Assembly (NCBI GenBank): GCA_026388095.1
Contig: JAPLKL010000075.1
Span: forward strand, 1-64,000
Origin: Elusimicrobiota bacterium
GTDB lineage: Bacteria; Elusimicrobiota; Elusimicrobia; UBA1565; UBA9628
Direction of reading: 5' to 3'
Length of the DNA: 64,000 bases
Shown here: positions 33,852 to 37,439 of the stretch, in pieces
Position numbering within the stretch: position 1 is the stretch's first letter
Layout: each line of letters begins with the position of its first letter
Position numbers and translations under genes: made by a program
Notes under the pieces: model-generated
What the model saw: only the letters and a program-made list of their open reading frames with translations
What the model was told of the DNA's origin: nothing
The model's database searches: none

Positions 33852-33917
33852 GGGGTCAGGTCTTGACATTTGACATTGGGGAATCTTCCGAAGAGTCCAA
33901 TGTCAAGACCTGACCCC
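33852..33917. repeat. REP-like inverted repeat ending exactly at the mutL start codon
   Basis: Perfect 19-bp arms, GGGGTCAGGTCTTGACATT (33852-33870) and its complement (33899-33917), flank 28 nt that hold the partly repeated TGACATTGGG. Repeats with this GGGGTCAGGTCTTGA border occur in many genomes beside REP-associated transposases. The right arm touches the mutL ATG at 33918. Confidence 0.85.
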
Positions 33918-35669
33918 ATGATCCACCGGCTTTCCCCGGAGGTCGCCAGCCGCATCGCCGCGGGAGAGGTCATCGAGCGGCCAGCCTCGGCCCTCAAGGA
34001 GCTGCTGGAGAACGCCCTCGACGCAGGCGCGCGACGCATCACGGTGGAGTGCGCGGGCGCGGGGCGGACTTCTTTGCGAGTGGTGGACGACGGCTGCGGC
34101 ATGTCCCCCGAGGACTGCGCCTTGGCCCTGGAGCGCCATGCCACGAGCAAGATAACGGACCTCGGCGACCTCGAGCGCCTGGCCACCTTCGGCTTCCGCG
34201 GCGAGGCCCTCTACGCCGCGGCCGCGGTCTCGCGCCTGACCTTGGCCAGCACCCTGCGCGGGGCCAAGTCCGGCTGGAAGGTTCAGGCCGAGGGCGGCAA
34301 GGTCGTCTCCTCCGGCCCGGCCCCGGCGGTCCCGGGCACGGCCGTCGAGCTGCGCGACCTCTTCTACAACACCCCGGCGCGGCGCAAGTTCCTCAAGTCC
34401 GACGCCTACGAGCGGGGCCGCCTGGCCGCGATCGTCGAAGAAGCCGCTTTGGCCGACCCGGCGCTGTCTTTGACCTACAAGTCGGAAAGCCGCACCGTGC
34501 TGCGCTTTGCGCCCGAGCCCGGCCGGGACCTGGCCGACGGCCTGCGCCGCCGGGCCGTGCGGGTGCTGGGCGAAGCCAACGCCGCGGCCCTGCTGCCCAT
34601 CGTGGTGGACCGGCCGGAGATGAAGCTGCGCCTCTTCGTCTCGCCCTGGGACGCGCTGGCCGCCACGCGGGACTTCCAATACTGGTTCGTCAACCGCCGG
34701 CCGGTCTCGGCGCGCATCCTGCAACAGGCCCTCTACCGGGCCTACCAGGGCCGGCCCTCGGACCGGCACCCCGTCTGCGTGGGCCACCTTGAGCTGCCGG
34801 GCGACGCCTTCGACGTCAACGTCCATCCGGGCAAGCGCGAGATCCGCTTCCGCTCCGACCGCGACGTCTTCGAGCTGGTCTCCGGGCTGGTGGCCTCGGC
34901 TTTGCTCAAGTCCAAGGCCCCGGCGCCCATCACGCCCGCGCCGCGCGTGTCCGTCTCCACGGGGGCGGTGCGCGAGCTGGCCGCGGCCTATCATGCCGTC
35001 CTTGAACAAGCCCCCCTGGCCCTGGAGACGGCCCCGGCCGAGTCATTCGCAGCGGCCGAGGGCCTGCCGCGCTGGTTCACGCCCCCCTTCCGCTTCTTGG
35101 GGCAGATCGAGCGCGCCTACCTGGTCTTCGAGGCCTCCGGCGGGCTCTTCATCCTGGACCAGCACGCGGCCGCGGAGCGCATCCTCTTCGAAAGATTCCT
35201 GAAGGAAGTCGAGCAGGGCCGCGCCCGCTCGCAGAAGCTGATGCTGCCCATGACCGTCGAGCTGCCGGCGTCAGCCGTGGAGAAGGTGCTCTCGCTCTCC
35301 GACCGACTGGAACGGCTGGGGTTCTCTTTCGAGGCTTTCGGCAAGAGGGGCCTGCACTGCCTGGCCGTGCCCGCGCTCTTCCACAAGGAGGCCGACCTCA
35401 AGGAGCTGGTGCACCGTCTGCTCGATTCCTTGCACGACCCGGTTTCCGCGGCCGAGGCGGTCCAGCACGACGCGGTGGCCACCGTGGCCTGCAAAGCCGC
35501 GGTCAAGGCCCACGACGCGCTCTCCGAGAAGGAGGCGCTGCGTCTCGTCGAGGACCTCAAGGACTGCCGTGACGGGTCCTGCTGCCCGCACGGCCGGCGC
35601 ACCATGCTCGCGCTCTCCCGCGATGAGCTGGCCCGGCGCTTCCAGCGGCCCGGCGCGCCGCCCCTCTAG
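33918..35669 (+). CDS. mutL: DNA mismatch repair protein MutL with endonuclease motif
   Basis: The 583-aa protein couples MutS to strand removal. The GHKL ATPase start is canonical (RLSPEVASRIAAGEVIERP, ENALDAGA, DDGCGM, TFGFRGEAL). The C-terminal dimerisation domain contains DQHAAAERILFE (about 414-425), which fits the DQHA(X)2E(X)4E metal-binding motif of nicking MutL proteins, and CPHGRR (about 556). It is therefore expected to cut DNA itself, as in bacteria without MutH. I take the ATG at 33918. An upstream in-frame ATG at 33900 lies inside the inverted repeat and adds residues not usual for the family. Confidence 0.96.
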   Translation: MIHRLSPEVASRIAAGEVIERPASALKELLENALDAGARRITVECAGAGRTSLRVVDDGCGMSPEDCALALERHATSKITDLGDLERLATFGFRGEALYAAAAVSRLTLASTLRGAKSGWKVQAEGGKVVSSGPAPAVPGTAVELRDLFYNTPARRKFLKSDAYERGRLAAIVEEAALADPALSLTYKSESRTVLRFAPEPGRDLADGLRRRAVRVLGEANAAALLPIVVDRPEMKLRLFVSPWDALAATRDFQYWFVNRRPVSARILQQALYRAYQGRPSDRHPVCVGHLELPGDAFDVNVHPGKREIRFRSDRDVFELVSGLVASALLKSKAPAPITPAPRVSVSTGAVRELAAAYHAVLEQAPLALETAPAESFAAAEGLPRWFTPPFRFLGQIERAYLVFEASGGLFILDQHAAAERILFERFLKEVEQGRARSQKLMLPMTVELPASAVEKVLSLSDRLERLGFSFEAFGKRGLHCLAVPALFHKEADLKELVHRLLDSLHDPVSAAEAVQHDAVATVACKAAVKAHDALSEKEALRLVEDLKDCRDGSCCPHGRRTMLALSRDELARRFQRPGAPPL

Positions 35670-35670
35670 C

Positions 35671-36045
35671 TCAGCGCAGGTTGGCGGCCTTCCTGATCCA
35701 GTCGTTGAGGATGACTTCTTCCTTCTTGGCCGTGTTGAGCTCGGCCTCGTACTCGCGCAGGAACTCCAGCATGTGCTGATTCTCCGCGTGCGTGTGCGTC
35801 TCACGGGCGAAGGCGCGGAAGTAGAGCTGCCCGGCATCGAGGTACGCCACGGTGACGGCCAGGTCCTGGGACACGTCCGTCGCGGTCTGCAGCAGGCGCT
35901 GGGTGTGAGCGGGCGGCTGAGGCGGCTGCAGCTTCGGCGCGGCGGGAGTAGAGACCTCAACGGCGGCGACGGGCGTGCTCGTGGACACCGCGGGCTCGGC
36001 GGCGAAGGCTCCGCCGACCGACAGGAGCAGAAATATCGTGGTCAT
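35671..36045 (-). CDS. Small exported protein of unknown function (124 aa)
   Basis: A short signal peptide (residues 1-15, IFLLLSVGGAFAAE) precedes a Pro/Ser/Thr/Ala linker (about 17-45) and a helical domain (about 46-124). It has no cysteines and no recognised family. TATACT (36057-36052) ends exactly 6 nt before the ATG and there is no ribosome site, so the mRNA is probably leaderless. The gene converges on mutL with one base between the stop codons. Confidence 0.7.
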   Translation of the reverse strand: MTTIFLLLSVGGAFAAEPAVSTSTPVAAVEVSTPAAPKLQPPQPPAHTQRLLQTATDVSQDLAVTVAYLDAGQLYFRAFARETHTHAENQHMLEFLREYEAELNTAKKEEVILNDWIRKAANLR

Positions 36046-36102: not shown

Positions 36103-36130
36103 TTGACAATTTTTGTCCGCCTGTTATACT
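36103..36130 (+). promoter_or_regulatory. Consensus promoter of small RNA candidate 1
   Basis: TTGACA (36103-36108), a 16-nt spacer and TATACT (36125-36130). No protein gene follows on the plus strand for more than 400 bp beyond it. Confidence 0.8.
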
Positions 36131-36136
36131 CATTGT

Positions 36137-36190
36137 GCAGGGGCGCTAAAGCGGTCGATAGAACGACGCCAGCTTGAGCGCCCCTCGCAT
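36137..36190 (+). ncRNA. Small RNA candidate 1 (about 50 nt hairpin)
   Basis: The expected start lies 6-7 nt after the TATACT box. The RNA is almost all one hairpin (36140-36184): GGGGCGCT pairs with AGCGCCCC, and the tip is GTCG-ATAGAA-CGAC. A weak T-containing stretch (TCGCATTTG) follows. The hairpin matches the end of candidate 2, including the tip. No open reading frame is present. Function unknown. Confidence 0.55.
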
Positions 36191-36226
36191 TTGTATATGG
36201 ACGGAGTCGCGTCAAGACCATGGGCC

Positions 36227-36254
36227 TTGACAAATCAAGAGCGCCTGCTATACT
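36227..36254 (+). promoter_or_regulatory. Consensus promoter of small RNA candidate 2
   Basis: TTGACA (36227-36232), a 16-nt spacer and TATACT (36249-36254). It is nearly identical in layout to the promoter 124 bp upstream, including GCCTG before the -10 box. Confidence 0.8.
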
Positions 36255-36259
36255 CAGAT

Positions 36260-36475
36260 TGTCGTATCCTCACCAGCCCGTCCTGAGTCCGGTGGAGTCG
36301 AAGCGGTCGGTAACGTGGTCGTGGTTGTGACGGGGTGCAAGCCGGTGCCGTGGCAGTCGACGTCGACGCGGCCGTTGCAGTCGCAGTTGCGTTCCGGACT
36401 CAGGGCGGGCCCTGTGCCGATCTGGGGCGCTAAGGCAGTCGATTGAACGACGCTTGCCTTAGCGCCCCAACCTTT
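36260..36475 (+). ncRNA. Small RNA candidate 2 (about 210 nt, structured)
   Basis: After the promoter, a 17-bp stem (36276-36292 with 36394-36410, one G-U pair) encloses about 100 nt rich in GTCG and GTGG repeats. A terminal hairpin follows (36424-36468): a perfect 14-bp stem starting GGGGCGCTAAGGCA with the tip GTCG-ATTGAA-CGAC, then AACCTTTTCCC. The terminal hairpin is a second copy of candidate 1 with compensating changes in the stem. No coding frame with a start codon is visible. The length is near that of 6S RNA, but I cannot show the central bubble that would identify it. Confidence 0.6.
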
Positions 36476-36479
36476 TCCC

Positions 36480-37439
36480 TCAGCGCTTGTGCAGGTCCGC
36501 GAAGTCGGCCTTGAGCTCCACTCCCAGCGCCTCCAGGACCAGGACCTGACGGTCGAAGCGGCTGGCGGTCTTCCGCGCCGCGCGGAAGCGCTCCCAGGAG
36601 CCGGCCAGCAGGCAGGGATAGGAGAAGACCGGCAGGGGATAGTCCGTGCCGAAGAGCAGGCGCTCGAAGAGCTCGGGGCGGCGGGCGATGCGCAGAAGCT
36701 GGCCCACCCGGTTGAAGAAGGTCAGGGCCGAGACGTCGACGTAGAAGCGCGGGTAACGCATCGCCAGCTTGAGCATCAGGGGCCCGTGCTGCTCATGGAA
36801 GAACAGCCCAGTGGAGCAGCCGTGCGCCGCGATCACGGTGACGCCCTCCTCCAGGGCCGGCACCAGGCGGTCCAGGCCGCCCACGGATTGGTCATGGCCG
36901 ATAAGAGCGAACTCGAAGCCCACGTGCGCCAGCAGGGGCAGACCCAGCCGCGCCAGCGCTTTGTAGAAGGGGCGGTAGCGCGGCAGCGCCGGGTCGAAAC
37001 GCTGGGCGTTGGCCAGGACCTTGACCAGGACTGCGCCCCGGGCCGCGCAGCGCTCGAGCTCGTCCAAAGCATCGACGCGCTGGGGGTTGATGGAGACCCC
37101 CGGCAGGAAAAGGCCGGGGGCCGTGGCAGCGGCCCGCAAGACCGTGTCGTTGGTGACCAGGAGGTCCGAATGAGCCTCGTCGAGGCGCCCCGACTCGTCA
37201 TAGGCGCCGTCCATGCCCAGGAGCACGGCCCGGCCGACCCTCTCTGAACCCAACAGTTCGGAGCGCAGCCTCTCCAGGTAGAGCAGGTTGGCCCGCTCGG
37301 GCTGGTCCAGGGGCAGGCCCATGGTCCTCGCCAGCATGGAGCCCAGCGGGCCCTCGCGCATGCGCCGCGAGAGCCGGCAGCCGTTCTCGGGCGTAGGCAG
37401 GGCCGCCAGATGCACGTGGACGTCGGTGAGCTTCCTCAT
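36480..37439 (-). CDS. Amidohydrolase-2 family protein
   Basis: The 319-aa protein has the TIM-barrel metal-dependent hydrolase pattern: DVHVHLAALP at the start (residues 6-15), LLAHVGFEF (about 169-177), VIAAHGCST (about 204-212) and the late aspartate in FGTDYPLP (about 270-277). These are the metal ligands of the family. The substrate cannot be read. The ATG overlaps the stop of the acyltransferase-synthetase gene (ATGA), making it the last gene of a four-gene minus-strand operon concerned partly with lipids. Confidence 0.82.
   Translation of the reverse strand: MRKLTDVHVHLAALPTPENGCRLSRRMREGPLGSMLARTMGLPLDQPERANLLYLERLRSELLGSERVGRAVLLGMDGAYDESGRLDEAHSDLLVTNDTVLRAAATAPGLFLPGVSINPQRVDALDELERCAARGAVLVKVLANAQRFDPALPRYRPFYKALARLGLPLLAHVGFEFALIGHDQSVGGLDRLVPALEEGVTVIAAHGCSTGLFFHEQHGPLMLKLAMRYPRFYVDVSALTFFNRVGQLLRIARRPELFERLLFGTDYPLPVFSYPCLLAGSWERFRAARKTASRFDRQVLVLEALGVELKADFADLHKR

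What the first reader, a model, noticed from the sequence alone, without database searches (positions are those of the whole stretch)
36103..36475. Two tandem promoter-hairpin units that look like a new small RNA pair
Two near-consensus promoters (TTGACA-16-TATACT) 124 bp apart each lead into an RNA ending in the same hairpin: a GGGGCGCTAA stem with the tip GTCG-AT(A/T)GAA-CGAC. Stem bases differ between copies in a compensating way, while the tip is kept. The second RNA has in addition a 17-bp stem around about 100 nt of GTCG-rich sequence. No protein gene is on this strand. I recognise no RNA family.
Basis: partly seen in the sequence, partly recalled or inferred. Interest (0 to 1): 0.72.

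Follow-up and report, generated by a model that had tools for sequence, protein, structure and literature searches.

The report
New small-RNA family in Elusimicrobiota bacteria
The two promoter-hairpin units are real members of a previously undescribed family of small structured RNAs, made from strong promoters and kept for a long evolutionary time in Elusimicrobiota bacteria, although what they regulate is still unknown.

Summary
Two 11-of-12 sigma-70-type promoters, 124 bp apart, lead into a hairpin-only RNA (~60 nt) and a longer RNA (~215 nt). The longer one has a 17-bp closing helix (P1) around ~101 nt and ends in a second copy of the hairpin (T).

This is a multicopy RNA family. The genome has six copies, five long and one hairpin-only. 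A related genus mostly has one, and the unit sits downstream of mutL in genera of at least two families of the order.

T is supported by compensatory changes at 14 of 18 pairs and P1 at 8 of 15; no shuffle reached the covariation scores. Four new hits of the hairpin model with enough upstream sequence all carry the same promoter. Nothing reaches an Rfam threshold, and phages, plasmids and viral contigs gave no match.

Hfq was not found in 38 related genomes, CsrA in only one; 6S RNA was not found in 28. My best explanation is an Hfq- and CsrA-independent paralogous regulatory sRNA family, working like Bacteroides FopS: T as terminator and protein handle, the P1-closed loop contacting targets. 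RNA and structure are strongly supported; function is inferred. No expression data were available.

The parts
36103..36130 (+). promoter 1: TTGACA-16-TATACT, preceded by TTTTGGGTC
   Evidence: 11/12; one of only 10 GGNCTTGAC-N15-18-TATACT sites in the genome
36137..36196 (+). unit 1, hairpin-only RNA (ends inferred: start about 7 nt after the -10, end at the T-containing tail)
   Evidence: sequence; fold z -4.1
36140..36184 (+). terminal hairpin T, copy 1: long stem, 3'-side bulge, 4-bp GUCG/CGAC cap, AUAGAA loop
   Evidence: R2 67.4 bits, (R2 was trained partly on this sequence)
36227..36254 (+). promoter 2: TTGACA-16-TATACT
36261..36478 (+). unit 2, long RNA, about 215 nt (ends inferred)
   Evidence: sequence; fold z -4.6
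36276..36292 (+). closing helix P1, 5' arm GCCCGUCCUGAGUCCGG
   Evidence: covariation
36293..36393 (+). GUCG-rich apical region, fast evolving, not more structured than shuffles
36394..36410 (+). closing helix P1, 3' arm CCGGACUCAGGGCGGGC
   Evidence: covariation
36424..36468 (+). terminal hairpin T, copy 2, followed by AACCTTTTCC
   Evidence: R2 73.9 bits, (R2 was trained partly on this sequence)
33870..35669 (+). mutL, the conserved upstream neighbour (context)
   Evidence: Pfam MutL_C and DNA_mis_repair; synteny
35671..36045 (-). small protein with signal-like start, between mutL and the RNA, possibly related to L051:697-1224 (context)
   Evidence: no Pfam match; resemblance judged by eye
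36480..37439 (-). Amidohydro_2 protein, convergent with the RNA (context)

Best explanation
Both units are independent noncoding RNA genes of one paralogous family found in Elusimicrobiota. SHOWN by comparison: each unit is a strong sigma-70-type promoter plus an RNA ending in hairpin T (long stem, 3'-side bulge, 4-bp GUCS/SGAC cap, mostly 6-8-nt A/U-rich loop, T-containing tail). The long form adds a covarying closing helix P1 around a fast-evolving, strand-biased, G-rich loop. INFERRED: T ends transcription, protects the 3' end and is the handle for a protein, since hairpin-only genes exist and the bulge-and-cap shape is what is conserved. The P1-closed loop with its repeated GUCG/GCAG words acts on targets by base pairing. 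Because Hfq and CsrA appear absent, this would be an Hfq/CsrA-independent paralogous sRNA family, working like FopS/RbpB in Bacteroides.
For: T helix: 96.3% of cells paired, 14/18 pairs with two-sided changes, 0/500 shuffles, sliding controls collapse. P1: 8/15 pairs with two-sided changes, 0/500 shuffles in the covariation score. R1, trained almost only on the window's genus, found T in other genera, and most of those with upstream sequence carry the promoter. Hits new to R2 (L145, L147, L149, L150) carry the promoter with 0-1 mismatches. Synteny downstream of mutL is seen in several genera of families f1 and f2. Paralogues sit at different loci, with the recA-locus pair of two species grouped at 100/98 support. 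GCAG and GTCG are common while their complements are rare or absent. No Hfq in 38 genomes, CsrA in 1 of 38. FopS/RbpB precedent: PMC11697453.
Against: No expression data. T-tracts are short or interrupted (e.g. TCGCATTTG). The apical loop is not conserved between genera, and no target or partner protein was identified; seed pairing was not tested. An RRM_1 gene adjoins only one copy, in another species. Several genera of the family show no copy. The two-sided-change counts lean on alignments built around this structure, and the sequences share ancestry.
Confidence: 0.5

Rival explanations
1. Protein-titrating decoy RNAs: T binds and sequesters an unidentified RNA-binding protein, hairpin-only genes are pure decoys, and the long form adds extra sites. 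CsrB-like logic with a different protein.
For: Hairpin-only genes; T is the part shared by all members, with a conserved bulge and cap; repeated GUCG/GCAG words in the long form; multicopy.
Against: CsrA not found in the genome and GGA is not kept in the tip (GUCG/CGAC in the window's genus). Loop sequence drifts between genera. No protein identified.
Confidence: 0.22
2. A lineage-specific 6S/Ms1-like RNA that binds RNA polymerase.
For: No Rfam 6S in 28 related genomes. Length of the long form, strong promoter and syntenic locus are reminiscent of Ms1, which replaces 6S in Actinobacteria (PMC9130861). Mostly single copy in genus g9.
Against: Only P1 and T show covariation across genera; no conserved central bubble flanked by two helices was found. 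Multicopy and hairpin-only forms in the window's genus. No 6S match among the hits listed at E up to 5.
Confidence: 0.13
3. Not a functional RNA: a repeated DNA module such as an insulator, terminator cassette, REP/MITE-like element or phage remnant.
For: Dispersed copies with inverted repeats; convergent position next to genes.
Against: Compensatory changes keep RNA pairing including G-U pairs; T-containing tail and promoter on the same strand throughout; orthologous loci kept across species; no phage, plasmid or viral match. No transposase was noticed beside the copies, but this was not searched systematically.
Confidence: 0.06
4. A short peptide is encoded in the long RNA.
For: Open frames of up to about 79 codons in single copies.
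Against: Single-base indels between close paralogues break any shared frame; the largest open frame lies in different frames and has different length among copies.
Confidence: 0.02

Closest known systems
FopS family of paralogous sRNAs with RRM-1 protein RbpB (Bacteroides; PMC11697453)
   Same: Multicopy sRNAs at scattered loci from standard promoters, with shared parts and diverged parts; regulation centred on a protein other than Hfq or CsrA.
   Different: No relatedness shown; FopS conserves a 5' seed, here T and P1 structures are conserved; partner and targets unknown here; an RRM gene adjoins only one copy, in another species.
6S RNA (RF00013) and Ms1 RNA (PMC9130861)
   Same: Long-form size, strong promoter, GC-rich closing helix, syntenic locus in a lineage without recognised 6S.
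   Different: No covariance-model match, no conserved central bubble, extra conserved 3' hairpin, hairpin-only paralogues, multicopy.
CsrB/RsmY-type sponge RNAs
   Same: Multicopy RNAs with repeated short words.
   Different: CsrA not found in the genome; no conserved GGA in hairpin loops.
Ordinary intrinsic terminator
   Same: G+C-rich hairpin with T-containing tail at the end of a transcription unit.
   Different: Very long stem with conserved bulge, 4-bp cap and loop size; six copies in the genome, each behind the same promoter type.

Membership tests
any Rfam 15 family | score at or above the family's gathering threshold | tested here: not met
   permissive scans list only sub-threshold chance matches at the RNA
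6S RNA (RF00013) | covariance-model match | tested here: not met
   0/28 genomes, model works in controls; not among the listed window hits
6S RNA (RF00013) | rod with a conserved central unpaired bubble between two helices | tested here: inconclusive
   consensus folds show closing helix plus weakly conserved interior
6S RNA (RF00013) | binds sigma-70 holoenzyme, templates pRNA | not testable with these tools
   needs co-immunoprecipitation
CsrB/RsmY sponge | CsrA in the same genome | tested here: not met
   0 in own genome, 1/38 relatives
Hfq-dependent sRNA | Hfq in the same genome | tested here: not met
   0/38 genomes, controls positive
paralogous sRNA family (FopS-like mode of action) | several independent promoter-driven copies with shared structure | tested here: met
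paralogous sRNA family (FopS-like mode of action) | transcripts detected | not testable with these tools
   no RNA-seq available
paralogous sRNA family (FopS-like mode of action) | base pairing with mRNAs, protein partner | not tested
   no target search made; one neighbouring RRM_1 gene is only a lead
mobile element / phage | matches in phage, plasmid or viral collections | tested here: not met
signal recognition particle RNA | covariance-model match | tested here: not met
   no SRP match anywhere in own genome (RF00169; RF01854), hence none at this RNA

The most novel reading that the evidence does not exclude
The RNA is the core of an unknown global regulatory ribonucleoprotein of Elusimicrobiota: either an RNA-polymerase-binding RNA standing in for 6S, or the partner of a new hairpin-binding protein that reads the bulge-and-cap of T and takes the place of Hfq and CsrA.
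Probability: 0.2. Interest if true: 0.8.

Novelty: new variant of a known kind. Interest (0 to 1): 0.58.

Why it matters
My literature searches found no small RNA described in Elusimicrobiota, and these genomes lack recognisable Hfq, CsrA (with one exception) and 6S RNA. A multicopy, structurally conserved, strongly promoted RNA family gives a handle on how such a phylum regulates genes by RNA. T makes good bait for finding its protein, and the covariance models give a ready Rfam candidate.

Tried and rejected
Common terminator: only six tips in the genome at up to 3 mismatches. Known Rfam RNA: none above threshold. 6S and SRP RNA: no match. Csr or Hfq RNA: partner proteins not found. Coding: frames not shared. 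Phage, plasmid or viral origin: no match. Excess structure inside the loop: none, mean z +0.3. RRM gene as regular neighbour: found beside one copy only. Eleven pattern matches in other phyla are weak or unmatched by R2 (best is L080, 27.2 bits, partial). Weak R2 hits in G123, G171 and G025 lack a good promoter or look like ordinary hairpins and are not counted.

Full report
OBSERVATION. The sequence shows what was described. Two TTGACA-16-TATACT promoters start at 36103 and 36227. Hairpins lie at 36140-36184 and 36424-36468, and the 17-bp stem 36276-36292/36394-36410 encloses 101 nt. Both RNAs fold far better than shuffles (z -4.1 and -4.6). Unit 1 is just promoter plus hairpin (~60 nt); unit 2 is a ~215-nt RNA ending in the same hairpin. 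RNA ends are inferred from promoter and tail positions.

COPIES. The genome (4.6 Mb, 79 contigs) has six hairpins: two in the window and one each at C63:122962, C74:51169, C75:71909 and C75:76139. Five belong to long units and one is hairpin-only. The strong promoter GGNCTTGAC-N15-18-TATACT occurs ten times in the genome and five of these drive the family; the sixth copy, at the recA locus, has the variant -10 TTAGACT. All six same-genus species searched have copies.

STRUCTURE. On 24 hairpins of mostly one genus, 7 of 18 pairs change on both sides. On 33 hairpins from several genera and families it is 14 of 18 pairs, 96.3% of cells paired, 0/500 shuffles reaching any of the five measures, with sliding controls far lower. 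The hairpin has a 13-pair lower stem, a single bulged base, one further pair, a 2-nt 3'-side bulge (usually GC), a 4-bp cap GUCG/CGAC or GUCC/GGAC, and a loop of mostly 6-8 nt. P1 differs between genera (CCCGUCCUGAGUCCG against CCCGCUCCGAAACCG) while staying paired: 8 of 15 pairs change on both sides, 0/500 shuffles in the covariation score. Many long units of the window's genus also appear to pair an outer helix (GUCGGGCG/CGCCCGGC, GUCGGACG/CGUCCGGC); I saw this by eye and did not test it.

INTERIOR. The region inside P1 is fast evolving and no more structured than its shuffles (mean z +0.3). The stretch between promoter and T is strongly strand-biased: GTCG 109 against CGAC 7 and GCAG 42 against CTGC 0 in one genus, 61 against 5 and 25 against 0 in others. 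This would suit an accessible loop, but simple repeat growth could give the same bias. Single-base indels between paralogues argue against coding.

DISTRIBUTION. Model R1 found the hairpin in 25 of 44 genomes of the family and R2 in 38 of 341 of the phylum at E<=0.001. R2 includes its own training sequences, and a few weak hits look like chance; 33 genomes with a hit at E<1e-7 remain after dropping G025, which lacks the promoter. Named records matching the tip pattern are mainly Elusimicrobia MAGs; eleven matches elsewhere are weak or unmatched by R2. Four R2 hits outside the training set with enough upstream sequence (L145, L147, L149, L150) all carry the promoter with 0-1 mismatches. No viral, plasmid or phage match.

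SYNTENY. A unit lies downstream of mutL in the window's genus, in G017, G008, several g9 genomes and order-level relatives G044, G034, G037 and G035; in the last two the promoter is degenerate. In g9 it is often convergent with queE. Another long copy lies beside recA in G000 and G003, and the two group together with high support. This is best read as vertical inheritance with duplication. Several genera show no copy, so it is not universal.

MECHANISM. Established by comparison: independent RNA genes with conserved T and P1. Inferred: T as terminator, 3' protection and protein handle; the P1 loop as the contact with targets. Hfq was not found in 38 genomes and CsrA in only one, so a different partner is needed. 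The FopS/RbpB system of Bacteroides is the nearest working analogue (PMC11697453); one copy in G003 adjoins an RRM_1 gene, which is a lead only. A 6S/Ms1-like role is possible because no Rfam 6S was found and Ms1 shows that lineages can replace 6S (PMC9130861), but the conserved bubble was not seen.

NOVELTY. No Rfam match above threshold, and no paper found in the held library on Elusimicrobia small RNAs. The library does not hold most subscription journals.

Noticed in passing
L115 (G000:C79:74085) and L033 (G007:C11:47089): A second undescribed RNA behind the same promoter type: GCCCGGCCTTAACTAGCTATCTTCGGGATAGAGGGGTAAGATAGTTGGTAAGGCCGGGC followed by CTCTTTTTT, with a relative in another genus; no Rfam match at E<=1.
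   Followed up: partly
own genome and relatives: No signal recognition particle RNA found with RF00169 (own genome) or RF01854 (14 genomes), and no 6S RNA (28 genomes); these RNAs may be strongly diverged in this lineage.
   Followed up: partly
L034 1127-1206 (G032:C24): c-di-GMP-I-GGC riboswitch candidate, 52.4 bits against a gathering score of 59, behind the same promoter type.
   Followed up: no
window 35671-36045 and L051 697-1224: Small proteins with signal-like starts and no Pfam match lie next to the RNA in two genera; they look alike by eye.
   Followed up: no
L022 1771-2193 (G003:C63): RRM_1 RNA-binding protein gene divergent from one long copy, about 170 bp away.
   Followed up: partly
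L017 176-340 (G001:C435): One copy carries a run of GTTCGTCCGTCGCC-like repeats between promoter and P1, suggesting growth by slippage.
   Followed up: no
window 17901, minus strand: The only other TTGAC-N15-18-TATACT site in the window; its downstream sequence was not examined.
   Followed up: no
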